DNA of 64,000 bases from contig CM041776.1 of the NCBI GenBank assembly GCA_023374045.1, positions 122,479,733 through 122,543,732 of the forward strand, in the 5' to 3' direction. Below are positions 867-36,210 of the stretch, in pieces (position 1 is the first letter of the stretch; each line of letters begins with the position of its first letter). Source of the DNA: Limonium bicolor (taxonomy: Eukaryota > Streptophyta > Magnoliopsida > Caryophyllales > Plumbaginaceae). Below the pieces are notes generated by a model that saw nothing but the letters and a program-made list of their open reading frames with translations, had not been told where the DNA came from and ran no database searches. The position numbers and the translations under genes were made by a program.

Positions 867-2048
867 TGAAATACCCCAAACCTTAATAAGTGGTTTAAAT
901 ATTAAAAAAATAAATTAATAAGACTAAAAGAGTCGAGACTTATAAATTAAGTAAACCATTTAATAAATAGTAAATACAAATTAATTGCCAAAAAAAAAAT
1001 TGGAAAACTGACTTATAATGAGTTTTGAATGGCTAAATGTCCATCATTACTCTTTAATTAATATGTGTACTATTTAGTATCACATTCGGAAGTTTAAATT
1101 AATAAGGAATCAAGAATTTCGTTTCAAAGTGCCTTGTTATTATGAATAGTAACTAAAATAAGCTAGTTTGTAATATATGTTAACATATGTAATTTATTGA
1201 GCAATAAAGGCTAAATAACCCCTTTTATTAAATGTGGGTCGTTATGCATGCGGTGAGTCACACCCTTGCTAATTGATTGAGCAATAAGTGAGTATTCTAA
1301 AAAGCACTATTTGCTTACGTGAGAAATATCCTTAAAAGCAACTACCATCAATCATTCTCTTAATCCCTTCATTCTTCCTTATTATCTCACGTAGCCATCT
1401 CCTTCCTTTTCTCTCTTTCACGATCGAACAGCACCAGCACAAATGCAACTTCAGATCCTTGTAACTTCTGGCTCACTTGTCCAAATCTAAAACCGAGACC
1501 ACCGATCTCTTAGTTTCATCAAGCTCTTCGACTTAGTCCTTTCAAATCTTCAAGAGCTCTCCATTTTGTGCCAAGAGGAATCTCCATGGAAGGAGCTTGA
1601 GTTCATCTTCTTACGTATTATTCTTCTCCTTTGCTTCAAGGTATGGAAACCTCAAAGAAAAATGGTGTTTCCTCCACGTTTTATGTTAACCAAGAATAGC
1701 TTAAAATTCCTTTGAAAAATGAACGTACGATGTCTACTGAAACTACCTAAAGAGCCAATGGTAAATGACTTAGAAAAATGCTCTCAGAGAGGTTAGTAAA
1801 GACATACGTACTGCTGTTTGTATTTGCAGGTGAAAGGCAATATATTGTGGAAATTCAGTGTTTAAGATTATTGCATTTTAAGAGCCTAAGAGCTATGCAA
1901 ATTTAAATTGTGCACTATGTTGTTATGTGGTGTATATTTGGTGAAGTTTTGAGTATAAGAGTGTACTGGGAAGTTTATACAAGTGATGGGTGTAAATAAC
2001 TTACGCAGCAGGACATGATAAGTGCGAGTACGTCAAATTCTGCAGTTC

Positions 2049-2231
2049 GGTCCGGGACTTGGGGTGTGGATGACATCCCGGACCATATATCAAATTAAGG
2101 TCGTGAGCTTTACATAGAGATAGGTCCGGGACTTGGGTCTTGTACAAGGACCCGGACCAACTCCTTAAAATCAACCGAGAGTAGAGTTCGTGTATGGTCC
2201 GGGTCTTAAGTTGGGGACCAAGTCCCGGACC
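2049..2231 (+). repeat. Three-unit hairpin array in 5' LTR
   Basis: Three 36-bp units lie at 2049-2084, 2123-2158 and 2196-2231. Each begins GGTCCGGG and ends CCCGGACC, so each can fold into a stem of at least 8 bp; the middles differ. Start-to-start spacing is 73-74 bp, about seven helical turns. The array ends three bases before a TATAAAA box. This is read directly from the sequence; a role as promoter-proximal binding sites is inference. Confidence 0.85.
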
Positions 2232-2233
2232 GT

Positions 2234-2240
2234 TATAAAA
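2234..2240 (+). promoter_or_regulatory. TATA box of 5' LTR (putative)
   Basis: TATAAAA lies immediately downstream of the hairpin array, about 1.37 kb into the LTR. The same arrangement recurs in the 3' LTR at 11575-11581. It would place the U3/R border in the middle of the LTR. No transcript evidence is available here. Confidence 0.5.
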
Positions 2241-3645
2241 CATGGTTTTTAGGTGTTTAAATGGTGTCTAATGATAGGTATAAGTTGGTAATGATATTAT
2301 AAGATTATACAAGACATGTTAGGAGTGTTATAATGACATTTTAAAAGATGAGAAGTTAAAACAAAATGTGGAAATGAAATAACTAGAAATGTTAACAGTG
2401 GATTAGTGCGTTAATTGACCGACGTTACTAAATGTGTTTAGGATTCTCTCAAGGTGGAAACCAGTCGAGGCAGGGACCGAGGTATGGTTTTCTTGCAGTC
2501 TGTTGCCTACCGGTTTACACCGGCTTGTGTGTTGTTTGTTTTCTGTGTGTTTATGACTTTGTAAGACTTAAGTCATGTAATGAGTTTACAGTTGTTATAT
2601 TATTATGTTGTTGGGATACGACTAATTTCCCTTGTGTGTGTCTAACAAGACTTAAACACTTGATTGTGTTCTGTGTACTGTGTTGCATTGTTGTACTACT
2701 AACAAGTGCTAACGGGGAAGTGAGGAGTCCGGTAGTTCCGGCCACGCGTGTGAGTATGGGAGTCGATGTCATTCACCGGTTCGATTCTCTTTGTATGTTT
2801 AGGTTGTTTTCCAATTTGGTTTCAATCTTCCCTTTAGCTTATCCAAGGCTATTTTACTGACTCACGTCGGGCCACAGGGCATACTATGTTTATTCAGTGT
2901 GCTTGGGATCACTATATCCGACACGCCTGGTGTTTAAGTTGTCCGTTCAGTTCTAAATGACGGTGATGAGTTATGTAACGAGCTTAGTATGAGTATGGCA
3001 ACATCCTCTATGCTCTCAGTGTGATCTAACATTGTTGGTTCGTTTCCTAAAAGGATTCGTTCTTGTGTGTCATTTGTGAAGTTATTTGCTATGCGATATT
3101 CTTGCTATGCTATTGTATATAGGATGTTATTGTGTAAAATGAATGCCATGTCATCATGACAATTGGTTGCGCGTATCCCGGTAGCCGATGGGCTGCGCGT
3201 TAGCCATACCAGCCAAGAGTTGCTGACCCCCTCGGGGGATCCATATTTCTTTTACTGCAGGATGAGGATTGAAGAAGCAGAGTGGCTCTAGATCCCAGGA
3301 TGTAGTTTACTTTTGAGTACCTTTGGATGTTGGCCCGGGTTGCGCCTGTGCTCCCGTGGCAATATGTATTTCAGTTATCGACAGTGCACAATGGAAGGTT
3401 ACAGTGACAGTGTATAATTATGGGTTGTAAGCTAAATACTCGGTTATGTGTGCATGTACTTATGGTTTTAGTTCTATGCTCGGGAGTCTGATCATCAGAC
3501 CGGTACACTTGTATCTATTCAGCCTTGTTAACCACGTGGGTGGTTGACGGCGTTGTAGCACCCAATCGTTTAGTTACTGTTTAGTTGTTCATATTCCGCT
3601 GCGATTCCAATATTTATTAAGTACGTAGTGGGGGTGTTACAAAAG

Positions 3646-3671
3646 TGGTATCAGAGCGAAGTATCGCTCTG
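3646..3671 (+). other. Primer-binding site (tRNA-iMet) with overlapping hairpin
   Basis: TGGTATCAGAGC at 3646-3657 is the classic plant retrotransposon primer site complementary to the 3' end of initiator tRNA-Met, four bases after the LTR. CAGAGCGA (3652-3659) and TCGCTCTG (3664-3671) form a perfect 8-bp stem with a 4-base loop, so half of the primer site can be sequestered. In element C the corresponding stretch after TGGTA is deleted. Confidence 0.9.
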
Positions 3672-3856: not shown

Positions 3857-4804
3857 ATGGCAGGTAGACCACGTGGTAGAGGCCGCGGGCGCGGTACTGA
3901 TGAAACTGGGGACCTGGGAGAAACCCTACGGCGCAAGTTATGGCCGATGCTGTTGCGGCCGCCGTAACCTAGATGGTTCCACAGTTAGTAGCTGTCGGTG
4001 CAGCAGGGGCAACAGCCCGGAGTTCAACCACCACCACCGCCACCGCCAAGAGAGACCAACTGGGTCAAGGCGTTGGCTGATTTGAGACCGCCGTCATTCG
4101 GAGGGGAGACCGACCCTAGTAAGCTGGAGGCATACATCTCTGAGTTGGAGACTGCCTACGAGACCTTGAATGTGCCTGAGGAGGTCAAGGTTCGTCTTGC
4201 CGCTTACTACCTGAAGGGTTCGGCACAGACCTGGTGGAAGCTAGTAAGGGAAGGCAGAGTTGCTGACCCGACCTTTCAGTGGAGGGAGTACACGGCTCTG
4301 CTGCGAGCGAAGTACTACCCGATACATGTGCAAGAGGCTAAACGCCTAGAGCTGGACAATCAGAGGCAAGGGGATAAGATGTCGGTAGATGAGTACTACT
4401 CAGCCTTCATCGGACTTATCCACCTGTTACCGGATCTGGGTTACTCAGACCGAATCCTAGTGAACCGTTTCTACAACGGGTTGAGCTACCGCCTACGCTA
4501 TGGCATGGGGCCAAGTGGATATACTACATTGCAGGAGTGCTATCATGCCGCTGCAATAGTTGAGATCACCGTCCGTCTTAGGGACGAGGAAAATGCGCTT
4601 AAGCGCAAGGCCACGAGCGAGGGTCAAAGCACGCAAGGGTTTGGGGGTGGAAAGAAGAAAAAGCCATACCCTCAACCCCAGAAAGGACAGCAACAGGGTG
4701 GCAAGGGCCAGGCCCAGACCACCACTACTGAGGAGCCATTGCAGCTCACCACTTATGCCTATGCGGCTAAGCCCCTGCGCTCTCAGCCATTCAAGGGTAA
4801 CTAG
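3857..4804 (+). pseudogene. Gag (capsid) with broken N terminus; exon to about 4796
   Basis: Structural protein that forms the retroelement particle. The likely start is ATG 3857, giving MAGRPRGRGRGRG, a basic leader typical of this lineage. That frame hits a stop at 3965; a second frame (about 3940) has a stop at 3970; the main frame resumes near 3998 and stays open to TAG at 4802. At least two indels and one stop therefore break the N terminus. The open part carries the Retrotrans_gag region, including GSAQTWWK and a conserved F-x-x-LPD-LGYSD stretch, then a lysine- and glutamine-rich tail. A consensus-like donor (AAGG followed by GTAACT) at 4796/4797, in phase with the zinc-knuckle exon, suggests the TAG at 4802 lies in an intron. 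Confidence 0.87.
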
Positions 4805-4879
4805 TTAAATCTGAACAATGAGTTTAAGTGTGTGATGTTATAATAAAAAGTGTGTACTGAATGTGTGATGTGTTAGCAG
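4797..4879 (+). other. Putative intron between Gag and zinc knuckles
   Basis: 83 bp starting GTAACT and ending TTAGCAG, richer in A+T than its neighbours and with several stops in all frames. The upstream exon ends one base into a codon, and the downstream exon supplies exactly the two bases needed to continue the CCHC frame, so removal joins Gag to the zinc knuckles in frame. The phase match is seen in the sequence; splicing itself is inferred. A programmed frameshift or a decayed linker is the alternative. Confidence 0.5.
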
Positions 4880-5232
4880 CTAGCACGGGCTCTGGACCGG
4901 AGCGCCACTATTACTGTAAGTGGTGCAACGGTGACCACCCCGGCAAGGACTGCAAGGGAAATGATGTGCAGTGCAGATTCTGCAAGAAGATGGGGCATCG
5001 TGACTACGAGTGCTTCCAGAACCCGAATGGTAGAAATTACAAGCCTAGGGGACAGTGGAAGGGTAAGGCTGTTGCGATTACCGAAGGCCCAAAGCCGGCT
5101 AATCAGCCACCTACCGACCAGAGGTATACTGATGCCCAGAAGGGGAAGGGATCGGGATCCAACAAGGCCGCCCTGAATGTGGTGGACCGGTCTGAGGCAG
5201 CAGAACCCTCTTCTAGACCAGGTACCGCCTAA
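4861..5232 (+). CDS. Nucleocapsid segment with two CCHC zinc knuckles
   Basis: Nucleic-acid-binding part of Gag. It has two knuckles: C-K-W-C-N-G-D-H-P-G-K-D-C (CX2CX3HX4C) and C-R-F-C-K-K-M-G-H-R-D-Y-E-C (CX2CX4HX4C), followed by a basic linker rich in K, G, P and N. The nominal ATG at 4861 is probably within an intron; the exon would be 4880-5221. The frame ends with stop TAA at 5230, just past a donor-like CAG/GTACCG at 5221/5222. Chromovirus Gag usually has one knuckle continuous with protease; here a separate exon follows instead. Confidence 0.87.
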   Translation: MCDVLAASTGSGPERHYYCKWCNGDHPGKDCKGNDVQCRFCKKMGHRDYECFQNPNGRNYKPRGQWKGKAVAITEGPKPANQPPTDQRYTDAQKGKGSGSNKAALNVVDRSEAAEPSSRPGTA

Positions 5233-5364
5233 ACCATTAAATGAAATGAGTGACTGTGTACCGCATTACATACATGCGTGTTAGTGAGTCTAAGTGTATT
5301 ACCATGTGAGTAAAAATTTAAAGTATGATGTGAAAGTCACCTAAACTAGGTAATTTAAATCTAG
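5222..5364 (+). other. Putative intron before the AlkB exon
   Basis: 143 bp from GTACCG to AATCTAG, A+T-rich and full of stops. The donor leaves one base of a codon and the acceptor at 5364 supplies two bases, so the zinc-knuckle frame runs in phase into the AlkB exon from 5365. The same donor is also in phase with a second acceptor at 6281 before the protease. Splicing is inferred from consensus and phase only. Confidence 0.5.
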
Positions 5365-6103
5365 GAACCTTCAATATTTGCTATCCAATCCCGCCCACAC
5401 CAAGCCCTGAAGAAACCGCCATCAACATCACCGACTTTCCAATGGAGCAATGTCAGGTCATCCAGCCAGGTATGATACTTTAAATGGATACCTGACACCG
5501 GAAGCACAAATCCACATCATCCGACGATGCGACGAACTGGGAACAGCACCAGGAGGTTTCTACACACCCGAATACCCGAGTGGGTCAAAAATGAAATTGA
5601 AGATGATGTGCATGGGTAAGGACTGGAATCCTTACACCAAGTCATATCAAAACAAGCGAGCTGAGGATGGAGCAACTGTACCAAGTATACCTGAGGAGTT
5701 CCTCGCGGTCGTTAACCACGCCGTGGGAATTGCTCAGCAAGTTGAATCTGATTCAATACCAAGTGTGAAAGCAGATTTATGTGTTGTGAACTTCTACCAA
5801 AAAGGAGGACGCTTAGGTTTACACCAAGATAAGGACGAGTCACCCGAGTCTCTACGTAAGGGAGTACCCGTGGTGTCTTGGTCCATTGGTGATACCGCAG
5901 TTTTTATGTACGGCGAGCAGAAGCGTGGTGACCTCGCAAAGAAGCTGATACTGAAATCAGGAGATGTGTTAATCATGGGTGGGCAGTCAAGGATGTTATA
6001 CCACGGTATCAAGAAGATCAAACTGAATACCGCACCTTCGACAGTGATCAATGCCACACACATGAAACCTGGACGTTTGAATTTGACCTTCAGACAGTTT
6101 TAG
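5365..6103 (+). CDS. AlkB-type 2-oxoglutarate/Fe(II) dioxygenase, ALKBH1-like, inside the retrotransposon
   Basis: AlkB enzymes remove methyl groups oxidatively from nucleic-acid bases using Fe(II) and 2-oxoglutarate. The open frame from ATG 5450 gives 217 residues. Visible motifs: GGFYTPEYPSGSKMKLKMM (residues 35-53), WNP (59-61), the NFY strand (114-116), iron ligands H125 and D127 in GLHQDKDE, distal H185 in LYHGIKK, and C-terminal R209-L-N-L-T-F-R215, the 2-oxoglutarate-binding signature. This pattern, with GDVLIMGG and SPESLRKG, fits plant ALKBH1-clade proteins. The C terminus ends naturally at RQF followed by TAG. Upstream, the exon from 5365 is open in another frame and includes VIQPGMIL, the usual start of the domain; a one-base loss in the T run at 5479-5481 breaks it from the main frame in this copy. 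It lies between zinc knuckles and protease, on the same strand. Substrate is unknown; RNA or tRNA is plausible for this clade. Confidence 0.93.
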
Positions 6104-6281
6104 CCCTGTGTAATATTGTAATGTGTTAAACCAGTGAATGTTGGGGATGTATTATGTGTTAATTGTGTCAGCAGTGTAAACCAACTTATGAAGTGAAGAG
6201 AATGTTAATAAATAAGTGGAGTTGTTTTGAAATATGTGAACCGTGCTGTTACTATATACTTATGAGTTTGCCAATAATCAG
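6104..6281 (+). other. Spacer between AlkB stop and protease, ending in an acceptor-like site
   Basis: 178 bp, A+T-rich, with multiple stops in every frame and no recognisable coding. It ends AATCAG at 6276-6281. The protease frame opens right after it and is in phase with the donor at 5221/5222. It could be the 3' part of an intron that skips AlkB altogether. Confidence 0.45.
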
Positions 6282-7216
6282 GCTGTGCACTCGGAACGGG
6301 AGGAGTACTGAGTGTCTGCAGTGAAGCAGAAGCCGGCAAAAGCGGCACAATCCTCACCGGTACCTTCCCAGTTAATGGCGTGGATGCATCGATCTTGTTC
6401 GACTCCGGAGCCTCACACACATTTATTTCGCTGTCTTTTGCGAAGAGGCTGGGGTTAGACGGTGAAGAGATGCCTGACTTTCTAGTCACTCTCCCGTCGA
6501 AAGAGCGGATCAGGTGTGCCCGCTACCACCGAGGTGTTGTTATACGAATCAGAGATGAGGAGTTTCCAATCGACTTGATAGAGTTCGATGGACTTGGTTT
6601 TGATGTGATTATCGGGATGAACTGGTTGGAGCGGTACAAGGGCAGAATCCTATGTGCCGAGCATCGACTGCTTCTTCGGAGTCCGTCTGGGGTTACTATA
6701 TCATACCGCCAGAGGCCCAGGGAGCCTTCGACTCAGATCATCACCGCCATGGCTATGTATCGTGAACTACGACGAGGGAATGATGTATACCTCTGCTATG
6801 TCCAGGACATAGAGAGAGACCCAGAGTTTAGCCCAGATGTGCCGGTAGTGTCGGAGTTTCCTGATGTATTTCCTAAGGAACTGCCGGGCATGCCGCCAGC
6901 ACGGGAAGTTGAGTTTGAGATTGATTTGGTTCCGGGCACCGGACCAATAGCGAAGGCGCCCTATCGTATGGCTCCAGCAGAGATGATTGAGCTCAAGGAG
7001 CAGCTAAGAGACCTACTTGACAAGGGATTTATTCGCCCTAGCGTTTCACCATGGGGAGCGCCGGTCCTCTTCGTGAAGAAGAAGGATGGTAGCCTCCGCC
7101 TTTGTATTGACTATCGAGAGCTGAATGCAGTTACGGTGAAGAACCGTTATCCTTTACCACGCATCGACGACTTATTTGATCAGTTGAGAGGAGCATCAGT
7201 GTTCTCCAAGATAGAT
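6282..7216 (+). pseudogene. Pol part 1: aspartic protease and RT N terminus
   Basis: The open frame begins after the stop at 6275 and has no good ATG at its start, so it needs splicing or another fusion mechanism. The protease active site is [10 protein letters not shown] near 6395-6425 (DSGA). RT follows: the linker [23 protein letters not shown], and the conserved block [25 protein letters not shown] near 7030-7100, then IDYRELN and [15 protein letters not shown]. At about 7215 one T is missing in the KID region, and the frame then runs on without homology to 7354. Confidence 0.9.
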
Positions 7217-7636
7217 TACGATCAGGTTATCATCAGATTGCAGTTAAGGACAGTGATATTGAGAAGACAGCGTTCAGAACCAGATATGGACATTATGAGT
7301 TTACGGTTATGCCGTTTGGTTTATCCAATGCACCAGCTAAGTTCATGGACCTAATGAACCGCTTGTTCCAAGATCAGTTGGACAAGTCAGTGGTAGTCTT
7401 CATCGATGACATACTTGTGTATTCGAAATCGAGAGGTGAGCATGAAACCCACCTGAGAAATGTGTTACAGATACTGAGGAAGAATCAGTTGTATGCAAAA
7501 TTTTCTAAGTGTGAATTTTGGTTGGACCAAGTTTCTTTTCTTGGCCATGTGATTTCTGAGGCCGGGATCGCTGTTGATCCGGCAAAGATAGATGCAGTAC
7601 GCACCTGGCCTAGGCCGAAGACAGTTACCGACATCG
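7217..7636 (+). pseudogene. Pol part 2: RT catalytic core
   Basis: A different frame from the preceding part because of the deletion near 7215. It shows [20 protein letters not shown] and the catalytic [11 protein letters not shown] near 7400-7430 (the YxDD position is FIDD, as in many Ty3/gypsy RTs). The connection [10 protein letters not shown]...FLGHVIS follows. A second one-base deletion near 7633-7636 throws the frame off just before the expected start of the RNase H connection. Confidence 0.9.
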
Positions 7637-7945
7637 GAGCTTCCTCGGTCTGGCAGGATATTATAGGAGATTTGTGAGAGACTTCTCCAGTGTCTCGAAG
7701 CCGATGACTTCCTTGATGAAGAAGGATGCTCCATTCGAGTGGACAGAAGACTGTGAGATTTCTTTTCAGAAGCTTAAGGATGCTCTGACATCTGCACCAG
7801 TCCTGACTATACCAGACGGTCCAGATGGTTTTGAGGTCTATTGCGACGCATCAGGTAAGGGTATGGGTTGTGTGTTGATGCAACACGGGAAGGTCGTAGC
7901 ATACGCCTCCCGACAGCTGAAGAAACACGAAGAGAACTACCCACG
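7637..7945 (+). pseudogene. Pol part 3: RT connection and RNase H N terminus
   Basis: A third frame, open 7674-8027. It reads [16 protein letters not shown] and [18 protein letters not shown], then the RNase H start [18 protein letters not shown] with its catalytic D, and [15 protein letters not shown]. At about 7938-7945 a small deletion (about 5 bp by comparison with the usual motif) moves the frame again; the next segment resumes within the same RNase H domain. Confidence 0.88.
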
Positions 7946-9654
7946 ATTTAGAATTGGGTGCCATTGTCTTCGCACTGAAGATATGGCGACATCATTTGTA
8001 TGGGGTAAGTGTAACGATCTATTCTGACCATAAGAGTTTAAAGTACTTGTTCACTCAGAAGGAGTTGAACATGAGACAAAGAAGGTGGGTTGAGTTCTTA
8101 AACGATTATGACATTAACTTGCAGTACAAAGAGGGGAAAGCAAATGTGGTAGCTGACGCACTGAGTCGCCGAGCACACTCTCTCCATTCGCTGGTCTCTC
8201 ATACTAGCTTGGTTGAAGAGGTGCGGAGTGCTCAGATGACGGATCAGTATATGTTGGAGATTAGACAGAAACTTATTGATGGGACATTCGAGGGCCAGAA
8301 GTACGACTTCAGACTCCATGACGATGAATTGATTAGGCTTAATGGCCGACTGTGTATTCCGAGGAGTAGCGCTGAGCTGAAGGAGCGCATACTAAGTGAA
8401 TCCCATTGTTCTACGACATCGATTCACCCCGGAGCTTCAAAGATGTATAAGGGTATGAAACGTTATTTTTGGTGGGCTGGCATGAAAAAGGATGTGAATG
8501 ATTATGTGTTGAGGTGTCTCACTTGTCAGAAAGTCAAGTTTGAGCACCGACGGCCTGGTGGTATGGTGCAGCCAATGCCAGTGCCTGAGTGGAAGTTCCA
8601 TGACATTTCTATGGACTTTGTAGTAGGGCTTCCGCCTACAAGGGGAGGTCTGAATATGATTTGGGTTGTTGTTGACCGACTGACCAAGGTGGCCCGATTC
8701 ATACCGATGAAGGACACCTGGAAAGTGGCAAGACTTGCAGAGCTCTTTGACAGAGAGATTGTTAGACATCATGGGGTACCGAAAACGATTGTATCTGACA
8801 GGGATACAAGATTCTTATCGAGGTATTGGAGATCCACAAGAGAAGCACTGGGTACTGAACTGAAATTGAGTACGGCGTTTCACCCACAGACAGATGGTCA
8901 GAGTGAGCGCACTATCCAGACACTTGAGGATATGTTACGTGCATGTGCACTTGACTTTCAGACCAGCTGGATTGATAAGTTACATCTGATCGAGTTTAGT
9001 TACAACAACAGTTACCATGCTTCGATCAAGATGTCTCCTTTCCAGGCTTTGTACGGTAGACCGTGCCGCACGCCATTATGCTGGGATGAGTCGAGTGAGA
9101 CGGTCATTATAGGACCAGAGTATCTGGAACAGGTGCAGGCAGAAGTTCGCCAGATCCGGGCTAACATGAAAGCAGCTCAGGATAGACAGAAGTCGTACGC
9201 TGATGTGCGCAGACGTGACCTGGAGTTCGCCGTGGGCGATCAGGTGTTCCTTAGAGTATCCCCCATGAAGGGAGTGTTTCGTTTTGGCCAGAAAGGCAAG
9301 TTGAGCCCAAAGTATGTGGGGCCTTATGTTGTGACGGAGCGGATAGGACCAGTAGCTTATAGACTTGATTTACCTGTTGAGCTGGGCAAGGTACATGATG
9401 TATTTCATGTGTCCCAGTTAAAGAAATATATGTCTCATCCGTCTCATGTACTTCAGCCTGAGAGGCTAACCTTAGAGCCGACCATGCGATCAGTGGAGAC
9501 TCCCGTACGGATTCTGGATACTAAGACTCGAGACACTCGCCATAAGTCTGTACGACTGGTGAAGGTCCTCTGGTCTAACCAGGACGTCGAGGAGGCCACT
9601 TGGGAGCTGGAAGATAAGATGAAGGCGAAGTACCCGTTGTTGTTTACTTCTTAG
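7946..9654 (+). pseudogene. Pol part 4: RNase H C terminus, integrase and chromodomain
   Basis: 566 open codons (nominal start 7954) to TAG before 9655. RNase H ends with [12 protein letters not shown] and [10 protein letters not shown]. The integrase HHCC zinc domain spans about 8400-8530, ending CLTCQK. The catalytic core has D in SMDFVVGLP (about 8613), D in VSDRDTRF (about 8797) and E in [11 protein letters not shown] (about 8900-8926). A GPY-like region ([19 protein letters not shown]) and then a chromodomain-like C terminus (about 9490-9640; [18 protein letters not shown]) follow. The chromodomain is known to direct chromovirus integration to heterochromatin. This segment is uninterrupted, unlike the upstream Pol. 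Confidence 0.92.
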
Positions 9655-9956: not shown

Positions 9957-9973
9957 TTTTAAGGGGGGTAGAT
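9957..9973 (+). other. 3' polypurine tract
   Basis: TTTTAAGGGGGGTAGAT abuts the TG of the 3' LTR at 9974. This is the expected plus-strand priming site for Ty3/gypsy elements. Confidence 0.85.
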
Positions 9974-12900
9974 TGAAATACCCCAAACCTTAATAAGTTG
10001 TTTAAATATTAAATAATAAATTATTAAGACTAAAAAGAGTCTCAGAAACATTAGTAAATAATTTAATAAATAGTAAATACAATTAATTGCCTAAAAGGGC
10101 AATATGGGCAAAAATATGCTCTAAGCTTGGGATAGTCTTGATTAAGACTTGATAAACTAACCAAGACCTTATATATATATTAATGAGCTTATTAAATCAA
10201 TTACCAAAGAAAACTGAGCTTGAAAACAAGTTAAAACACAAAATGTGCTTTAATGAGTCGTAAAGCACGTTTTCGGAAAATTGTCTTGTAAATGAGTTTT
10301 GAATGGCTAAATGACCATCAATACTCTTTAATTAATATGTGTACTATTTAGTATCACATTTGGAAGTTTAAATCAATGGGAAATCAAGAATTTCGCTTCA
10401 AAGTGCCTTGTTATTATGAATAGTAACTAAAATAAGCTAGTTTGTAACATATGTTAACATATGTAATTTAATTGGGCAATAAAGACTAATTAATCCCTTG
10501 TATTTAAATGGGGGTCGGTTCTGCATGGAGTGGGTCGACACCCTTGCTTGCTGAGCAAATAAGTGAGTAGTTTAAGAAAAAGCACTATTTGCTTTACGTA
10601 ATTAATATCTTAAAAGCAACTACAATCATTCATCCTTCATTCTTCATTTGCTCTTACTTCTCACGTAGCCATCTTCTTCCTTCTCTCTTTCACGATCGAA
10701 CAGCACACCACCAACATACAACTTCAAATCCTTGTAACTTCTTGCTCACTTGTCCAAATCAAAAACCGAGACCACCGATCTCTTAGTTTCATCAAGCTCT
10801 TCGACTTAGTCCTTTCAAATCTTCAAGAGCTCCATTTTGGTGCCAAGAGGAATCTCCATGGAAGGAGCTTGAGTTCATCTTTTACGTATTATTCTTCTCC
10901 TTTGCTTCAAGGTATGGAAACTCAAAGAAAAATGGTGTTTCCTCCACGTTTTATGTTAACCAAGAATAGCTTAAAATTCCTTTGAAAATGAACGTACGTT
11001 GTCTACTGAAACTACCTAAAGAGCCAATGGTAAATGACTTAGAAAAATGCTCTCAGAGAGGTTAGTAAAAGACATACGTACTGCTGTTTGTATTTGCAGG
11101 TGAAAGGCAAATATATTGTGGAAATTCAGTGTTTAAGATTATTGCATTTTAAGAGCCTAAGAGCTATGCAAATTTAAATTGTGCACTATGTTGTTATGTG
11201 GTGTATATTTGGTGAAGTTTTGAGTATAAGAGTGTACTGGGAAGTTTATACAAGTGATGGGTGTAAATAACTTACGCAGCAGGACATGATAAGTGCGAGT
11301 ACGTCAAATTCTGTAGTTCGGTCCGGGACTTGGGGTGTGGATGACATCCCGGACCATATATCAAATTAAGGCCGTGAGTTGTACATAGAGAGGTCCGGGA
11401 CTTGGGTCATGTACAAGGACCCGGACCAGCCCTTAAAATCAACCGAGAGAAATTGCATAGAATGGTCCGGGACTTAGGACCTGGGTGAAGTCCCGGACCA
11501 CCCCAATAAAAGAGACCGAGAGGTTTGCTAAGTATAGGTCCGGGACCTAAGTTAGGGAGCAAGTCCCGGACCACTATAAAACTTGGTTTCTAGGTTGATA
11601 AACGATGTCTAATGATGGGTATAAGTTAGTAATGATATTATAAGGTTGTTCAAGACATGTTAGGAGTGTTATAATGACATTTTAAAAGATGAAAAGTTGG
11701 AACAAAATGTGGAAATGAAATAACTAGAAATGTTAATATGGACTAGTACGTTAATTGACCGACGTTACTAAATGTGTTTAGGATTCTCTCAAGGTGGGAA
11801 CCAGTCGAGGCAGGGACCGAGGTATGGTTTTCTTGCAGTCTGTTGCCTACCGGTTTACACCGGCTTGTGTGTTGTTTGTTTTCTGTGTGTTTATGACTTT
11901 GTAAGACTTAAGTCATGTAATGAGTTTACAGTTGTTATATTATTATGTTGTTGGGATACGACTAATTTCCCTTGGTGTGTCTAACAAGACTTAAACACTT
12001 GATTGTGATCTGTGTATTGTGTTGCATGTTGTACTACTAACAAGTGCTAACGGGGAAGTGAGGAGTCCGGTAGTTCCGGCCACGCGTGTGAGTATGGGAG
12101 TCGATGTCATTCACCGGTTCGATTCTCTTTGTATGTTTAGGTTGTTTTCCAATTTGGTTTCAATCTTCCCTTTAGCTTATCCAAGGCTATTTTACTGACT
12201 CACGTCGGGCCACAGGGGCATACTATGTTTATTCGGTGTGCTTGGGATCACTATATCCGACACGCCTGGTGTTTAAGTTATCCGTTCAGTTCTAAATGAC
12301 GGTGATGAGTTATGTAACGAGCTTAGTATGAGTATGGCAACATCCTCTATGCTCTCAATGTGATCTAACATTGTTGGTTCGTTTCCTAAAAGGATTCGTT
12401 CTTGTGTGTATTTGTGAAGTTATTTGCTATGCGATATTCTTGCTATGCTATTGTATATATGATGTTATTGTGTAAAATGAATGCCATGTCATCATGACAA
12501 TTGGTTGCGCGTATCCCGGTAGCCGATGGGCTGCGCGTTAGCCATACCAGCCAAGGGTTGCTGACCCCCTCGGGGGATCCATATTTCTTTTACTGCAGGA
12601 TGAGGATCGAAGAAGCGGAGTGGCTCTAGATCCCAGGATGTAGTTTGCTTTTGAGTACCTTTGGATGTTGGCCCGGGATGCGCCTGTGCTCCCGTGGCAA
12701 TATGTATTTCAGTTATCGACAGTGCACAATGGAAGGTTACAGTGACAGTGTATAATTATGGGTTGTAAGCTAAATACTCGGTCATGTGTGTATGTACTTA
12801 TGGTTTTAGTTCTATGCTCGGGAGTCTGATCATCAGACCGGTACACTTGTATCTATTCAGCCTTGTTAACCACGTGGGTGGTTGACGGCGTTGTAGCACC

Positions 12901-12978
12901 AATCGTTTAGTTACTGTTTAGTTGTTCATATTCCGCTGCGATTCCAATATTTATTAAGTACGTAGTAGGGGTGTTACA
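9974..12978 (+). repeat. 3' LTR of the AlkB chromovirus
   Basis: 3005 bp, TGAAATACCCC to GGGGTGTTACA. It is 230 bp longer than the 5' LTR because it keeps a segment near 10100-10280 and a fourth hairpin unit. The first 400 bp resemble the X-family LTR at 29291, so the two families are related. It is directly followed by GTCTT and then an LTR of element C in which this chromovirus (or its recombination partner) inserted. The ORF at 11772-11984 is the counterpart of the spurious one in the 5' LTR. Confidence 0.92.
11320..11581 (+). repeat. Four-unit hairpin array and TATA box in 3' LTR
   Basis: Units of 36 bp at 11320-11355, 11392-11427, 11464-11499 and 11537-11572, each GGTCCGGG...CCCGGACC, spaced 72-73 bp. 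TATAAAA follows at 11575-11581. The third unit has no counterpart in the 5' LTR, so the copy number is unstable within the family. Confidence 0.85.
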
Positions 12979-15954
12979 GTCTTTTGAGGAGCTGGAAATC
13001 TACATGTTTGGTTGCCAAACTCTCCATTGGTATACTTGAAGGTAAACTCCAAACTAAGCCCTAAACTAGCTCTTGAAAAATTCTAGTTTAGTATGGGATC
13101 GGTGAATTAATTAGCTTGTTTGGTATGGAATGGAATGCGATTGTAGCTAGCAATCTAAACTCCACTGTTGGTGAGAAAACAAGAAGAGGAATAGAAAACA
13201 AGGAAACGAGGAAGAAGAGAAAAGAAAACAGAAAAACTAGCAAGGTAATGGTTTACCTTAACTTGGTTTTGTTCTCTGTAAAACACATTTTTGGACGTAA
13301 ATAATGATCTTGAGTTAGAGTAGTTATGATACTACAACATTTTTGTTGGATGAGGAATTTTTAATATTGTTGGGTGTGCAAAATAAACCTAGAAACTAAG
13401 TTAGTATGTGTGTGATAACAGTGGGTAATTTAGTGTGTAGTAGCAGTGATTTTGATGCTTGTATAAACAGGGATGTAAAGCTGGTTTTTGTGGGTTATTA
13501 AGTGTTGTGAGAGTGCTTAGGAAAGTAGGCAAGCTTTGTCAAAATTTTCTAGGAAACTAAGGGCTTGAGTGTGTCAAAGCGTGGAGTTAGAATGGTAAGG
13601 AAGAAAAGGATTGAAAACTGCAATAGAAGAAACTGGGAATCAGCAACATAAGGAGATTACAGTGAGTGAAAAAGGGTAGATTAACTGATGAGTATGGAGA
13701 ATGGTTTAGGTTAGCTTTGAGTGCCTAATCAAGGTCAAAACATGCTAGAATATATGTGGAATGATTAGGGGATGATTAGAGGAGGTTTAGGGGTTGAAAA
13801 CTGGTCAAAAACTGTAAATTTTGACAGTTCCAGGGTTGGTCCGGGTTTGCAAACTGGTACATAAACCCGGACCACCCCAAAAACATGCGTGTGAAAGTCA
13901 TTACATAGGCTGGTCCGGGTTTGTATCCTGGTACACAAACCCGGACCATAGCAAAATGTAGGCAGAAAACTGAAAATCGTGTCTGGTCCGGGTTTGTAAC
14001 CCCGGACACAAACCCCGACCAGTGTAAAAGTTGCCAGAATGTGTTTTTAAGAGTCCTAATGATGGGGAAGTGAATGGTAATGGTTTTTAGGATGTTTAGG
14101 ACTTGTTTGGTGACCTATAAAGGTCTTTGGAGGTGTAAACAAGTTTGAGAAGTGAATGAGAAAGTTGTGAGTTTATGAACACATGAACTAAACTAGGAAT
14201 AACGGGATAACGGGGTTAAGTACGGGAGTAGCATTTAATTATGTTCCTTATGAACTTAGTACTAATAATAATGTTTCATACATTATCAGAGGATCGTGTG
14301 TGACCCGAGCATGGTGAGATGACATGGTAAAAGTAAAAACCCCGGTGAAAGGTATGATTTTCTCATGCCCCGCATGCTAACCGAGTTACTCTGATTTGTG
14401 TGTTTGTGTGCCGGCTTAATCAAGACTAAAGCATGAAAATGAACCATTGCTTGTTTATGAATGTCTTGATGTATATTGTATGAGCTAACATGCTTGAATG
14501 CCGGTGAGGTCTAACCTAGTGCGTAGACAGACTCTTAGTTGAGTAACGAATGGCTATAGACTCGTAGAACGAGTCGTTTCACAAAATAACGGAAACATGC
14601 AAACACACAAGCTATCGATTAAAGTATAACGATAATGCAAAATATGAACTCCCTAGAATGTGAGGAGAAGTACGGGTTGAGTAAATACCCGATAACGGTT
14701 AAGAAACCATATTGAAATAATCCACGAAATAAATAAGAGTGTAGAGATAAATGAACCTCCATATAGAGGAATGTAGATAGTTCAAGATGTGAACTTGTAA
14801 GAAAGGTAAAAGAGACCTAAGGGATTATTTAACTCCATTGAGACATGGTCGACCTCCTATATGAGGATTTTACCCGGTGTGAGAAAATAACCGAATGTAT
14901 AAGTAAGTGAAGTGTAAGGGTGACCCATAAACTTAAGATTACCTGAACTTAGGTAATGTTCCAAAGTCATTAGAAACATCGAGAGAGATGCTTCTAGACT
15001 AATATACATAAGAATAGTACAACTCCGAGAAAGGAGTGCATGGGAAGGTGAGTAGTCCGAGAGTAGTCGGACCTATGTGAAAGTAGTAGGGACTAAGAGA
15101 GAGTTCCGTGAGTTAGTCAACTATGCCCGAGAGCCATGTGTTTTGGCTTAAGTATGTTTTATGAGAAACAAGCGAGAAGAGCGTAGGAGACCTGTAGTGT
15201 CTCGAGAACTACGTGAGCTTGAGTAATAACCCAAGAGAGTGGGTGTGTATAAGAATGAGTAACCCAAGAGAATGGGCGAGAATAAGAGTATGTAACCCGA
15301 GTGTATGGGTGAGTTATTGAACAAGTAACCAAGGCATGGTGAGGTATAACCCTCAAGGCCTAAAAGTAAATTTACACAACTAATAACGTTGTTGTGTTAG
15401 TTTAGGATTGAATTCCATGGTTGAATGTGAATCTTTGTGTAGTGTAGATATGTAATGTATTACCATGTTGCATGTTGATTGAATTAAAATGAATCTCATG
15501 CTCTCGACAAAAGTAGTCGGCGTACCACGGTTAGCACGCGGTATATGCGAATTTCATATGCAGCGAAAGCTGAGCCCCTTGGGGCCCCATTTTTACTTTT
15601 CAGGTACACCGAAGATGATACCGTTCGAGTGAAGGACGGGGATGGTGGTTGACATGGGTAGTTAGATTTTAATTACTTATGTACTAGAATGAGGTGCAAG
15701 ACCGAATATGTTATCGGCATCCGTATATTGTGAACTCGGTATAGTAAGAAGTGAATGGAGTTTTGTGTTTTTATTGTATACTCGGTTGTTCCATTCCATC
15801 AGATCGTTACTGTAATTGAGATAGGCCTGGTTAGCCATATGGGTGGCTAACGGCATTGTATCACCCTTCGTTGTAATAGAGTTCCGCTGCGTGAGTAAGG
15901 GTAATTTGTGAAAGTTTAAGAGGTAATGACGAGTTTAACGGTTGGGGTTTTACA
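12979..15954 (+). repeat. 5' LTR of element C, left end missing
   Basis: Matches the LTR copy beginning at 28676 and continuing at 33964-34096 and 35921-37933 in long near-identical blocks (for example 13116 onward against 28816 onward, 14030-15740 against 36220-37930). It ends GGGGTTTTACA at 15954. The first 1.05 kb of this LTR (equivalent to 27626-28675) is missing because the AlkB chromovirus occupies the left side. No genes; ORFs here are short and unconvincing. Confidence 0.85.
13838..14020 (+). repeat. Hairpin array in element C 5' LTR
   Basis: Three 36-bp units at 13838-13873, 13912-13947 and 13985-14020. Each starts GGTCCGGGTTTG and ends AAACCCGGACC or a close variant, giving stems of 11-13 bp. 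Spacing is 73-74 bp. Unit length and spacing equal those of the AlkB chromovirus LTR although most of the rest of the LTR differs. Confidence 0.85.
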
Positions 15955-27625: not shown

Positions 27626-30600
27626 TTTAATACGTCGGACCTTAAAGTGGTGATTAAATTATTCTAATACGATTATTAAAGGCCTAGTAATGCCTAGAGA
27701 GTATTGGTAAAGAGAATAAAACCAAAAGAATAGAGAAAATGCGTATAACGCGAAAAACGCTAAAACGCGCATTAAATGAATAAAGGAGAAATATGATCTC
27801 GTTAGAGTCCGACATGGATTACTAGGGCTTAATTATGCCTAATTAGTACGTGGGAATATTTCCCGAAGAAAACGGATCCAAATAATGGATTAAAACGGTA
27901 ACGGAGTTTTAAAGCACGTTTTTCGAGGAAACCCGAAAACGCGACTTTAAGTGGTCAAACGGACCCGTAGAAATTATAGTTGATTAAATAACTATAAATA
28001 GGCATTAATGGAAGCTTAATAACCATTAAAAATAAAGAAACGAGAAAAATCTGAAAAACGGGCCGGTGAGTGAATAGTGCCGAACCGGGTAAAATGACGA
28101 GTGTTTTCTATAAAAAAAACGAAAAATGCTCCAAGCTTGTATCTTGTATGGGGCCGGTTTTAATTAGTATACACACACATTTAATTAGCTTGTTAGCTTA
28201 TTAAGTCACAAGATGACAAATAAATAAAGTAAAGAAGGGAATAGTAAAAAGGGGAATAGTAAAAAGATTTAAATTACTCTCTCACCTCCTTTGCCTCTTC
28301 ACTTACGATTCCCAGCCCTCTCTGCATATCTTCTTCTTCCTCTGTAAGCTCATTTCCGATTTGAGAAAGTGCAAACAGCCACCACCTTCTTCCTCCATTT
28401 CTTGCTTGATTCTTCACCAAATCACACAAAATTAGTACCGTTAGATTCCTCTCGTTAAGGGCAACATTTTCCACCCTTCAAAAGTTTGAAACCCTCTCCT
28501 TCATTCCCATGGAAGTAGGCTCGTTTGTAGCTTGTAGGGGTGTTTTTGAGTCTCCTTCATCTTCTTAATACTCCAAGGTAAAAAGAAAACCAAAAGCTCC
28601 ATTTTTACTACCTTACTCTTGCAAAAACCAAATTCCCACGTGAGCTCTTTCTTCAATTTTTCAGCCGGTTTCATTGGTCTTTTGAGGAGCTGGAAATCTA
28701 GATGTTTGGTTACCAAATTATCCATTGGTATACTTGAAGGTAAACTCCAAACTAAGCCCTAAACTAGCTCTTGAAAAATTCTAGTTTAGTGTGGGATCGG
28801 TGAATTAATTAGCTAGTTTGGTATGGAATGGATTGTGATTGTAGCTAGCAATCTAAACTCCACTTTTGTGGAGAAAACAAGAAGAGGAAGAAAGAACAAG
28901 GAAAAGAGGAAGAAGAGAAAAGAAAACAAAAAAACTAGCAAGGTAATGGTTTACCTTAAGTTGGTTTTGTTCTCTGTAAAACACATTTTTGAACGTAAAT
29001 AATGATCTTGAGTTAGAGTAGTTATGATACTACAACATTTTTTGTTGGATGAGGAAGTTTTAATATTGTTGGGTATGCAAAATAAACCTAGAAACTAAGT
29101 TAGTATGTGTGTGATAACAGTGGGTAATTTAGTGTGTAGTAGAAGTGATTCTGATGCTTGTATAAACAGGGATGTAAAACTGGTTTTTGTGGGTTATTAA
29201 GTGTTGTGAGAGTGCTTAGGAAAGTAGGCAAGCTTTGTCAAAATTTATCTAGGAAACTAAGGGCTTGAGTGTGTCAAAGCATGGAGTTAGTGAAATACCC
29301 CAAACCTAAGTATGCTAAGTAAACATCAAATCATGATGTAGTAAGACTAAAATATGCCTTAGAAAGATTGGTAGACAATTTAAACCAAGGAAACACAAGA
29401 AAGTGCCTTAAGGGCAATCAGGCAAAAACGTGCTCTAAGCTTGGAGAGACTTGGGTGAGTACCCAAATATCATGGTAAGACCTTAGTAATATTCTAATGG
29501 TCATTTTAAATCAATTAGCAAAGAAAACCAAGCTTGAAAACAAGTTAAAACACAAAATGTGCTTTAAGAAGTCTTAAAGCACATTTTTGAGAAATTGTCT
29601 TAGAATTGAGTTTTGAGTGGCTAAATGTCCATCATTACTCTTTAATCAACATGTGTACTAATTAGTATCACATTAGGAGGTCTAAATCAATGGGAAATCA
29701 AAAATTTCCCGATTATGTGCCTTGTTTAGTGAATAGTAACTATTTAGTGACTAGTTTAAGTTTTAATCAACATAAGTCAATTAATTGGTCAACAAAGACC
29801 ATGTTAGCCTTATTTAAGAGGGTGGCCGGTTTTCTAAGAGAGGTGAGTCACTACATGAGTCATCAAATAAGAAAGGAAAAGAAGAGTAAGTAAGAAAGTT
29901 ACTATTTGCTTAATAAAGCAAATATCTTATATTAGCTCACTTCTCTCCTTTATTCTCCATTTCTCTCCTTCACCCACGGTTTCTTCTTCTTCTCTCTGTT
30001 CCAAAACCGAGAGTGTTGCTTCCCCATGGTTCTCCATCTTCAATCACTTACCAAATACACAATATTGCTCCAAATCAAAAACTAAACACATATTATTCTT
30101 AGTTAGGTCAAGACCTATCTTTCTATCTTTTCAAATCTTTCAAAGCTCCATTTTGGTGCCATGAGAAAACTCCATTGATGGAGGAAAATCAAGTTTGAAG
30201 AGCTCATTAGCTTCTCCATTCTCTTAAGGTAAAGAAAATGTAAGAAAAACCATGTTTCCATCATTTTTTATACATGGCCGAAAATTATTTCTCATGGGGC
30301 TATGTTTTTATGCCTTGTTCTAGCTTGATTTATTCACCAAGCACTAGTGGAGGTCCTATTTCATTCAATGCCAAAGTCTACCTTGAGACTTCAAAGGTAA
30401 TCATCCACTTTTATGCCTTAGAACACATTTCTAACCTAGGGTTTCATTCCTTGAGGTTAGTGCATTGTTTAGTGCTCATATGAGTTCTTAAATATTGATT
30501 AGAACATTGGCAAAAGGAATTTAAGTGGTGGCCGAGATCTATGCAAGAAGAAGGCCTAAGGAGGAAATTGAGATAGGCTTGAGAAAACAAGGTAAAATGC

Positions 30601-31863
30601 TTACCTAATGGTGGTTTAAGATTAAGGAATGAGTTTTAGATAAATACTAATGTGGCTTAGAGCTTACATTGTGTATTGGGTTATATAACCTAAGAAAAAG
30701 AACTTAAACAAGCTTATGAACTTGCGATTAAGGAGCTAATGAGAATGAGTTAGTAATATAAGGTTAAGGTGGATTTTAAGAGCATTATAACTACTATGAG
30801 ATTGATGAGTGTATTTGCAGGTTGAAAGCTTATATATGTGGGAAATTCAGTGTTTTTAAGTCATTTAAGGGCCTAAGAGCCATGTCATTTAAGAGCCTTA
30901 GTGCTATGCAATTTAAGATTGTTGCAATATATTGAGTTTGTTGTGAATGAGTTGGTTTGGGTGATGAGATATGATGAGAAAGAACTTGAGGTGTGTGAGA
31001 TGGTTAAATGAGGAAAAATAATGTGTTTGGGCATGCTATGATGCTAGAGGTGCTATGGCAAAATTTGAGTAGAAAGTAAGTGTTTAGGCGATGGTGGTGA
31101 ACTAATATGACCTAGGATTTACTAGGAATCATTATGAGGAATTTGAGTGGAGAATTAGTTAACTAAGGAGTTCTTGAGGTTTAGGATGACCTAGAGATGT
31201 CTAGGAGGAGTTAGAGGAATGGCGAGTGTTTTGAGCACACCAAAATCATGAGATGAGGAATATAAGAAGTGTGCATAAGTTTAAGGAGAAGGTGTAACGA
31301 TTAAGGTGATTTGAATGTGTTCTAAGGGGAAATAATGACTAAGGAAGTACTAGGAAGTTTTAGAGGTTGCCTTGATGAAAAAGGGGTGAGATAAAGTGTG
31401 GTAATGAGTTATAATGACTTAGGCATTACCTTTGAGGATTTAAGAATCAAGAGAATGTAATTGAGCATGTAGGACTTAGGCAAATGTTGGTAAACAACTA
31501 GGAAGGAAATAAGGTGTTGGTGGATGGAAGCTTAAGCTTAGGAAGGAACTTTAAGTAAGTGCATAAAAGGATTTTCGATGGTGAAAGATGCTTGTGAGAT
31601 GATGTTATAGTGGTGAAGAAAACATTTGGCATAGTGGTTACATTAGGTATGAACCACCACCTAGAACCTAGAGGAAAACGTTACAAGTGTTAGCATTATT
31701 ACAAGGAAAATGCATAATGACTAAGGTGGATCTTGGTGAATGATTTAAGGTATTTAAAGGAGGGCTTAAGGTGTATTTGAGGTGCCCAAATGGGGTTTAT
31801 AACATATTAGAATATATGAGGAGAAGTTTGGAGTTGAAAGAGAATTTAGAAACAAGTTTCTAG

Positions 31864-36032: not shown

Positions 36033-36210
36033 GCTCCGGGTTTGCAAACCGGTACACAAACCCGGACCACCCCAAAAACATGTCAGAAAGTCTAACAGAG
36101 CTGGTCCGGGTTTGTATCCCGGTACACAAACCCGGACCATAGCAAAATGTAGGCAGAAACTGAAAATCATGTCTGGTCCGGGTTTGTAACCCCGGACACA
36201 AACCTGGACC
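36033..36210 (+). repeat. Hairpin array in element C 3' LTR
   Basis: Units at 36033-36068, 36103-36138 and 36175-36210, 36 bp each, GGTCCGGGTTTG...AAACCCGGACC with a single G-to-C change in the first arm of unit 1. These are the partners of 13838-14020, with shorter spacers (70-72 bp). Confidence 0.83.

What the first reader, a model, noticed from the sequence alone, without database searches (positions are those of the whole stretch)
5365..6103. An LTR retrotransposon encodes an ALKBH1-type AlkB dioxygenase between Gag and Pol
Seen: a 217-codon open frame with HxD (H125, D127), distal H185 and the RLNLTFR signature, on the same strand between zinc knuckles and protease of a chromovirus, within its LTRs. 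Known: AlkB enzymes demethylate nucleic-acid bases; some plant RNA viruses carry AlkB domains; I know of no standard chromovirus domain set that includes one. Inference: the element captured a host ALKBH1-clade gene and may use it to remove methyl marks from its RNA, cDNA or primer tRNA. Host m6A or m1A marks could otherwise restrict it.
Basis: partly seen in the sequence, partly recalled or inferred. Interest (0 to 1): 0.95.

Follow-up and report, generated by a model that had tools for sequence, protein, structure and literature searches.

The report
Chromovirus family carrying an AlkB demethylase
A large, recently active family of plant jumping genes carries a conserved AlkB-type demethylase gene as an exon that can be spliced onto its coat gene, which suggests it can erase methyl marks from its own nucleic acid.

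Summary
The window carries an LTR chromovirus (LTRs 867-3641, 9974-12978) with a complete ALKBH1-type AlkB domain between nucleocapsid knuckles and protease. It is not a one-copy accident: the 2.9-Gb host genome gave 150 scored matches at 86-100% identity, and 40 of 40 fetched copies have AlkB in the same place. Four show 5-bp target duplications with 0.4-1.5% LTR divergence. A second lineage, about 40% alike in Gag, has the same order. AlkB is under purifying selection (median dN/dS 0.134); the transposon AlkBs form one clade (100/100). New here: spacers around AlkB behave as phase-1 introns, and some genomic copies have lost them exactly at the predicted sites, as retro-copied spliced RNA would. 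AlkB is thus an exon that can be joined in frame to Gag-NC; skipping it would give Gag-Pol (not seen). Prior art: an ALKBH5-like m6A demethylase in Phalaenopsis Tat/Ogre elements (PMC9289625). AlkB type, element clade and position differ here, hence a new variant of a known kind. Substrate is inferred; the window's own copy has a 1-nt AlkB frameshift.

The parts
867..3641 (+). 5' LTR (TGAAATACCCC...GGGGTGTTACA)
   Evidence: direct repeat of 9974-12978, K2P 0.0555 over 2774 aligned sites
3646..3657 (+). primer binding site TGGTATCAGAGC (initiator-Met tRNA type; name recalled)
   Evidence: directly after the 5' LTR; same in L004-L007, L010, L011, L016
3998..4796 (+). Gag capsid exon (start codon not settled; the listed ORF begins with GTG 3998)
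   Evidence: PF03732 E 1.4e-16, PF19259 E 2.6e-11
4797..4879 (+). intron 1, phase 1, between Gag and nucleocapsid; tandem acceptor (exon start 4880 or 4877)
   Evidence: GT 39 of 41, AG 38 of 41 copies; exactly missing in L027 and L076, missing with acceptor 4877 in L077
4880..5221 (+). nucleocapsid exon with CCHC-type knuckles
   Evidence: zf-CCHC_3 E 0.0028, below cut-off; pN/pS 0.296
5222..5364 (+). intron 2, phase 1, removed when AlkB is included
   Evidence: GT 41 of 41, AG 40 of 41; lengths in all mod-3 classes and stops in every frame, 41 copies; exactly missing in L076, L077, L079
5365..6103 (+). AlkB exon (ALKBH1-type 2OG-Fe(II) dioxygenase), ends in its own stop codon
   Evidence: PF13532 E 3.7e-47; OsALKBH1 5xeg E 4.6e-66; model pLDDT 92.6, TM 0.91-0.93 to 5xeg/5xoi; pN/pS core 0.161, N-extension 0.205
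5450..6103 (+). AlkB open frame as found in this copy (217 codons; first ten residues out of the natural frame)
   Evidence: frame change near 5480
6104..6281 (+). spacer; 3' part of the alternative intron 5222-6281 that would skip AlkB (skipping inferred)
   Evidence: AG at 6280-6281 in 41 of 41; lengths in all mod-3 classes, stops in every frame; diversity drops at 6282
6282..9654 (+). Pol exon: protease, RT, RNase H, integrase, C-terminal chromodomain (decayed by small frame changes in this copy)
   Evidence: protease pN/pS 0.139; no Met before the DSGA active site in the window
9961..9973 (+). polypurine tract AAGGGGGGTAGAT
   Evidence: same before the 3' LTR in L004, L005, L007, L010, L011, L016
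9974..12978 (+). 3' LTR

Best explanation
This is one decayed member of a large, recently mobile chromovirus family that captured a plant ALKBH1-type AlkB gene, probably once and long ago, and has kept it under selection as an exon between nucleocapsid and protease. Shown by sequence: multi-copy, fixed position in two deep lineages, purifying selection, intact iron and 2-oxoglutarate ligands, exon edges at conserved GT/AG sites in one phase, and genomic copies from which intron 1, intron 2 or both are exactly gone, as expected of reverse-transcribed spliced RNA that joins Gag-NC to AlkB. Inferred: skipping the AlkB exon gives Gag-NC-Pol, and unspliced RNA is the genome. I think it most likely that AlkB, tethered to the RNA-binding nucleocapsid, removes methyl groups from the element's own RNA (m6A or m1A) and so escapes host methyl-mark control or blocked reverse transcription. 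My odds: conserved selected module about 0.95; AlkB spliced to Gag-NC about 0.93 (raised from 0.8); AlkB skipping to Pol about 0.8; an active demethylase about 0.85; own RNA as main substrate about 0.45 (cDNA about 0.2, primer tRNA about 0.1, host RNA or chromatin about 0.25).
For: 150 scored AlkB matches (the window's included) of 50,421 first-look candidates, 86-100% identity, 137 of 150 with no stop inside the match. 40 of 40 fetched copies have NC upstream and protease downstream of AlkB. Lineage B: Gag, NC, AlkB, PR, RT in the same order in 4 of 4 wide loci. AlkB dN/dS median 0.134 (41 copies, 727 pairs), NC 0.213, PR 0.105; N114, H125, D127, H185, R209, R215 in 41 of 41, Y116 in 40 of 41. 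Pooled pN/pS: AlkB core 0.161, N-extension 0.205, shifted frames 0.88-2.68, spacers 0.61-0.87; lineage B AlkB 0.205. Splice sites; lineage B donor 12 of 12, AlkB acceptor 12 of 12, PR acceptor 11 of 12, NC acceptor 11 of 12, AlkB open from its acceptor 12 of 12. Spliced retro-copies: L027 lacks intron 1 exactly while L025 and L026 have it; a search for the joined NC-AlkB edge gave 15 places, reversed control 0, and 3 of the 4 read (L076, L077, L079) lack intron 2 exactly; L076 also lacks intron 1 exactly, L077 lacks it by the tandem acceptor. Recent mobility: TSDs GATAA, GTCAT, TAAGT, CGTAA with LTR K2P 0.0102, 0.0092, 0.0037, 0.0146. One clade of transposon AlkBs, 100/100. Fold.
Against: No RNA or protein was seen. 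The AlkB-skipping junction was never found: its search did not complete. Of the 15 places one of four read (L078) keeps the intron, 11 were not read, and 3 of those look like the intron's own end. In lineage A 17 of 41 copies are open from the AlkB acceptor to the stop, 25 of 41 have NC open and in phase, 35 of 41 PR, 10 of 41 all tested exons. The window's sublineage (L004, L006, L007, duplicate L005) carries the frame change yet inserted recently, K2P 0.0017-0.0285, so a Gag-linked AlkB is not needed in cis by every mobile copy. Diversity shows no step at donor 5222 and only a modest one at 4880. In lineage B 8 of 12 copies have a stop-free frame in the AlkB-PR spacer. Copies were picked from best-scoring protein matches, which favours conserved ones, and pairs are not independent. 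No Gag-AlkB fusion among the 120 listed of 2135 proteins. AlkB-less relatives could not be sought.
Confidence: 0.83

Rival explanations
1. AlkB is expressed alone, from its own internal ATG (5442 in the intact frame, 5450 in shifted copies) by re-initiation or a separate transcript; splicing to Gag-NC occurs but is not the functional route.
For: The window's recently mobile sublineage keeps a complete AlkB core behind an ATG at 5450 although the Gag-linked frame is broken.
Against: Codons 5367-5471, most of them upstream of those ATGs, are under selection in the spliced frame (pN/pS 0.205, no stop in 41 copies); the diversity step is at 5365; lineage B is open from the acceptor in 12 of 12; retro-copies of NC-AlkB-joined RNA exist.
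Confidence: 0.12
2. Accidental passenger: a host ALKBH1 copy entered an ancestor once and hitch-hiked without function.
For: The window copy is decayed; many lineage A copies carry frame changes.
Against: dN/dS 0.134 and catalytic residues in 40-41 of 41, retention across lineages about 40% alike in Gag, selection in lineage B too.
Confidence: 0.03
3. The enzyme's main target is DNA: 6mA or alkylation damage in the element's single-stranded cDNA, or 6mA in host chromatin at its targets, as for rice ALKBH1.
For: Closest solved relative is OsALKBH1; [quoted passage not shown] passage of PMC12973404).
Against: No direct evidence; the one retrotransposon AlkB tested in a paper I read acts on RNA m6A (PMC9289625), though of the ALKBH5 type.
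Confidence: 0.25
4. AlkB acts on the initiator-Met tRNA primer (m1A), easing priming or plus-strand synthesis.
For: PBS of initiator-Met type (name recalled); human ALKBH1 acts on tRNA (title of a reference in PMC12973404).
Against: The model is nearer E. coli AlkB than human ALKBH1 in fold; other plant elements use the same primer without an AlkB (recalled).
Confidence: 0.1

Closest known systems
Phalaenopsis Gypsy_Pa_2799 elements with a 2-ODD/AlkB ORF (Alvarado-Marchena et al. 2022, PMC9289625; parts 1-5 of 7 read)
   Same: Plant Ty3/gypsy LTR retrotransposon, high copy number, complete AlkB domain; theirs demethylates m6A RNA in vitro.
   Different: Theirs: ALKBH5-like, a separate ORF2 in 25-kb Tat/Ogre-type elements with dual RNase H and a tRNA-Arg PBS. 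Here: ALKBH1-type, in a chromodomain element of about 12 kb, between NC and protease, as a spliceable exon. Their screen of 121 angiosperm genomes found the domain only in Phalaenopsis. Their protein was not compared here by sequence.
Ogre and Bianca elements with a non-coding region inside gag-pol (passage of PMC6317226)
   Same: Spacer in gag-pol; in Ogre it is an intron spliced from a subset of transcripts, a way to set product ratios.
   Different: Ogre's intron lies between GAG-PROT and RT; no captured gene in it is mentioned there. Here an AlkB exon sits between two spacers separating NC and protease, with a further intron between Gag and NC.
BARE and EVADE spliced subgenomic RNAs (abstract of PMC3735527; passage of PMC12786077)
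   Same: Splicing gives a Gag-type message (BARE) or subgenomic RNAs (EVADE) beside the full-length RNA.
   Different: Ty1/copia elements; no added enzyme is mentioned in the parts I saw.
Plant ALKBH1 (rice OsALKBH1, PDB 5xeg/5xoi)
   Same: Best sequence and fold match; same ligand residues.
   Different: Many host proteins carry longer N-terminal parts; the transposon clade sits on a long stem (0.7 changes per column).
AlkB domains of plant RNA viruses (Alpha-, Betaflexiviridae, Closteroviridae; as told in PMC9289625)
   Same: A mobile parasite with its own AlkB.
   Different: RNA viruses; not compared here by sequence.

Membership tests
Ty3/gypsy chromovirus | LTRs, PBS, PPT and order GAG-PROT-RT-RH-INT | tested here: met
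Ty3/gypsy chromovirus | C-terminal chromodomain on integrase | tested here: inconclusive
   Pfam Chromo E 5.1e-4, 20.3 bits, below cut-off 25.1; its C-terminal position fits
Chromovirus Tekay clade | RT/INT phylogenetic position | not tested
   no reference RT set at hand; long LTRs and Met-type PBS fit (recalled)
AlkB 2OG-Fe(II) dioxygenase | fold with HxD...H and R...R ligands | tested here: met
   PF13532 E 3.7e-47; fold search; these residues kept in 41 of 41 copies
AlkB 2OG-Fe(II) dioxygenase | demethylase activity | not testable with these tools
   needs biochemistry
Plant ALKBH1-type AlkB | closer to plant ALKBH1 than to other AlkB types | tested here: met
   many named hits are plant 6mA-demethylase/ALKBH1C/ALKBH1D records; best PDB hit OsALKBH1, no ALKBH5 chain at E 0.001. 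Caveat: the tree held ALKBH1-like rows only
Phalaenopsis AlkB (Tat/Ogre) elements | ALKBH5-like domain in a separate ORF of a non-chromovirus element | tested here: not met
   ALKBH1-type, between NC and PR
Ogre-type spliced gag-pol | untranslatable spacer with conserved splice sites in phase | tested here: met
   exact intron loss in retro-copies
Ogre-type spliced gag-pol | spliced RNA observed directly | not testable with these tools
   no RNA data

The most novel reading that the evidence does not exclude
An old chromovirus lineage uses a captured AlkB gene as an alternative exon: inclusion makes a Gag-NC-AlkB protein that is built into the particle and erases methyl marks from the packaged genome, while skipping makes Gag-Pol, so one splice choice sets both the Gag:Pol ratio and the dose of an on-board demethylase. 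With the orchid case it would be a second, independent capture of an epitranscriptomic eraser by plant retrotransposons.
Probability: 0.45. Interest if true: 0.88.

Novelty: new variant of a known kind. Interest (0 to 1): 0.76.

Why it matters
Two retrotransposon groups that differ in clade, AlkB type and gene position would have acquired the same kind of enzyme, which argues that base methylation of element RNA or cDNA is a real restriction that elements must overcome. The abundance and recent mobility of this family make that testable in one living plant. A captured enzyme spliced onto Gag would be an unusual way for an LTR element to arm its particle, and possibly to set its Gag:Pol ratio.

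Tried and rejected
Rejected: accidental insertion into one copy (40 of 40 fetched copies have AlkB in place). Rejected: read-through or frameshifting across the spacers in lineage A (spacers 2 and 3 hold stops in every frame in 41 of 41 and have lengths in all mod-3 classes; spacer 1 has a stop-free frame in 2 of 41). Rejected: MSGHPARYDT as a genuine AlkB N-terminus. Led nowhere: IMG/VR scans (0 relatives; 3 loci at 28-41% identity, not followed); a search reaching proteins up to about 1.75 times 377 residues for a Gag-AlkB fusion (none among the 120 listed). The splice matrix is recalled from memory and is weak alone, so comparative tests were made. In one search one query row (PR_RT) was cut out of frame and is ignored. 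One search, a query with an Arabidopsis AlkB protein meant to find the host gene, found lineage B; the host's own ALKBH1 gene was not located. Rows dropped:'s 150 matches (one is the window) 40 were fetched, picked by hand to span the list;'s 93 matches 12 were read (4 given by the tool, 8 chosen), so that all 93 belong to lineage B is not shown;'s 15 places 4 were read. In one search LTR stretches of 10 copies were asked for: 9 gave an alignable pair (L006 in part only; L017 and L038 cut at the fetched edge), L014 gave none, and L005 repeats L004 with the same flanks.

Full report
What is there. The window holds an LTR retrotransposon on the + strand: LTRs 867-3641 and 9974-12978, PBS at 3646, PPT at 9961. 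Coding order by Pfam is Gag, zinc knuckle (below cut-off), AlkB, protease, RT, RNase H, integrase with an SH3-like part and a weak C-terminal chromodomain (below cut-off). LTR divergence is K2P 0.0555 over 2774 sites; no target duplication is seen (GACTAT/GTCTTT). Pol changes frame at about 7216-7237, 7635 and 7943. AlkB carries one base fewer near 5480 than in-frame relatives: a database relative (P0002) aligns in frame 3 at 5340-5480 and in frame 2 at 5480-6100.

What the AlkB is. PF13532 E 3.7e-47. Best solved relative is rice ALKBH1 (5xeg, E 4.6e-66), then E. coli AlkB, then ALKBH1 of mammals; no ALKBH5 chain came within E 0.001. A model from a 32-row alignment has mean pLDDT 92.6 and matches OsALKBH1 at TM 0.91-0.93. 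In a search of 5.8 billion proteins the best four hits (P0001-P0004, 62-71% identity) come from unnamed contigs; the other 116 listed of 2385 are at 46-54%, the named ones being plant proteins and one from Volvox.

It is a family. The window's genome (2.92 Gb, 2686 contigs) gave 150 scored AlkB matches, the window's among them, of 50,421 first-look candidates, 86-100% identity, 13 of 150 with a stop inside (best matches only, a lower bound). I fetched 40 of the others. 40 of 40 have NC sequence upstream and protease sequence downstream in the same order; Gag was found in 39 of 40 (in part in L021, L023), leader in 37 of 40, RT in 39 of 40. LTR pairs: L004 K2P 0.0102 with TSD GATAA, L010 0.0092 with GTCAT, L011 0.0037 with TAAGT, L016 0.0146 with CGTAA, read by eye from the printed flanks; L007 0.0017 and L006 0.0285 (part only) without a clear TSD; L005 has L004's flanks, so it is a duplicated region. 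At a recalled plant rate of 1.3e-8 per site per year the four with TSDs are roughly 0.1-0.6 million years old.

A second lineage. A search with an Arabidopsis protein named putative DNA oxidative demethylase (P0273) gave 93 scored matches of 46,968 candidates, 56-62% identical, 75 of 93 without a stop, open frames 215-313 residues. The 4 loci supplied all show Gag (38-48% identity to the window's), NC (47-70%), AlkB (62-64%), PR (59-63%) and RT in the same order; 8 more, shorter, were read. So the arrangement predates the split of two lineages far apart in Gag. In a tree of 87 rows the 25 transposon AlkBs and P0001-P0004 form one clade (100/100) on a stem of 0.7; lineage A (100/99) and B (98/97) are each single groups and P0001-P0004 fall between, nearer A. 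One capture is the simplest reading; that P0001-P0004 lie in transposons is inferred. The place among hosts is weak (74/90). An earlier tree of 121 rows also grouped the window with P0001-P0004 (98).

Selection. Across 41 copies AlkB median dN/dS is 0.134 (727 pairs with dS above 0.08), NC 0.213 (36 copies), PR 0.105 (39 copies); N114, H125, D127, H185, R209 and R215 are kept in 41 of 41, Y116 in 40 of 41. Pooled pN/pS: AlkB core 0.161, N-extension 0.205, NC 0.296, PR 0.139, against 0.88-2.68 in shifted frames of these stretches and 0.61-0.87 in spacers. Lineage B AlkB: 0.205 against 1.47 and 1.28 in shifted frames, 12 copies, no stop. Copies were chosen by protein similarity and pairs are not independent, so values lean low; the contrast with shifted frames of the same stretches is within the same copies.

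The intron layout. Three spacers (4797-4879, 5222-5364, 6104-6281) are C-poor and T-rich (C 6-15%, T 30-35%) beside flanking exons (C 23-26%, T 17-25%). In 41 copies GT 4797 is kept in 39, AG 4878 in 38, GT 5222 in 41, AG 5363 in 40, AG 6280 in 41; many other GT and AG pairs in the spacers are kept as well, so this alone is weak. Stronger: spacer 2 and 3 lengths fall in all mod-3 classes (15/13/13 and 13/16/12) and every copy has stops in every frame. Diversity drops at 5365 and 6282 and rises after 4797; it shows no step at 5222, where about 16 bases are nearly invariant, and a modest one at 4880. Every junction is phase 1. Lineage B has homologous sites: donor GGTAAGC 12 of 12, AlkB acceptor 12 of 12, PR acceptor 11 of 12, NC acceptor 11 of 12, AlkB open from its acceptor 12 of 12; its spacer 2 has stops in all frames in 12 of 12, its AlkB-PR spacer in only 4 of 12. 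In the window's Pol frame the first Met lies after the protease active site.

Spliced retro-copies. While checking the counts I found that L027 lacks intron 1 exactly (AAAGG joined to CTAGC) while the similar copies L025 and L026 keep it. A whole-genome search for the joined NC-AlkB edge, up to 2 mismatches, gave 15 places and 0 for the reversed control. Four were supplied and read: L076 lacks introns 1 and 2 exactly and keeps the AlkB-PR spacer; L077 lacks intron 2 exactly and intron 1 through the neighbouring AG of a tandem acceptor (exon start 4877); L079 lacks intron 2 exactly but keeps intron 1; L078 keeps intron 2 and matches only because of how its intron end reads. Of the 11 not read, 7 have AGACCAG joined to GAACC letter for letter, 3 look like the intron's own end and 1 differs at the edge. 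Exact losses at predicted edges are what reverse transcription of spliced RNA leaves, so Gag-NC joined in frame to AlkB is an RNA that has existed (L076 and L077 carry other damage near the junction). None of the 40 lineage A copies showed the joined NC-AlkB edge. The AlkB-skipping edge could not be searched, and copies fetched by AlkB cannot show it.

Against this reading. In lineage A 17 of 41 copies are open from the AlkB acceptor to the stop, partly because I fetched many matches in the window's shifted frame. The window's sublineage inserted recently with the shifted frame, so either these copies are helped by others, or the core is made from the ATG at 5450. No fusion protein was among the 120 listed.

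How it may work. Arabidopsis ALKBH9B releases ONSEN RNA from stress granules by removing m6A (passage of PMC12786077), and m6A on retrotransposon RNA is tied to heterochromatin in Arabidopsis (passage of the review PMC12973404; the original was not held). [quoted passage not shown] A Gag-NC-linked AlkB would sit on the packaged RNA. Which base it acts on cannot be told from sequence.

Prior art and novelty. PMC9289625 (parts 1-5 of 7 read) reports an ALKBH5-like domain in Phalaenopsis Tat/Ogre elements with m6A demethylase activity, and found it in no other of 121 angiosperm genomes screened. The library holds open-licence papers only, so absence from print is not shown.

Noticed in passing
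window 29291-33963 (+) and 42459-37934 (-): Two further long LTR-like sequences, about 82% alike and partly similar (70-84%) to the AlkB element's LTRs; the + one looks like a solo LTR.
   Followed up: no
window 12979-15752 versus 28677-29290, 33963-34096, 35920-37936: Local duplication at 91-96% identity, its second copy interrupted by the solo-LTR-like insertion and another stretch; one edge coincides with the AlkB element's 3' LTR end.
   Followed up: no
window 44147-43962 (-): Integrase remnant about 47% identical to the AlkB element's; no second AlkB, Gag or NC match elsewhere in the window.
   Followed up: no
L004/L005 (G000 C5 and C6): Two copies on different chromosomes with the same flanks and LTR counts: a duplicated region or an assembly duplicate.
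   Followed up: partly
L004-L007 and window: A recently mobile sublineage shares the 1-nt AlkB frame change, so it spread with AlkB uncoupled from Gag; other copies have different changes near the same T-run.
   Followed up: partly
window 4875-4879 and L077: Tandem AG acceptor (TAGCAG) of intron 1: L077 kept three bases more than L027 and L076, as if both AGs are used.
   Followed up: partly
P0241: A Smallanthus protein record with an RNA-recognition motif beside the AlkB domain (PF00076, PF13532).
   Followed up: no
window 53464-53630 and 57975-58141: 167-bp direct repeat pair at 98.8% identity, unidentified.
   Followed up: no
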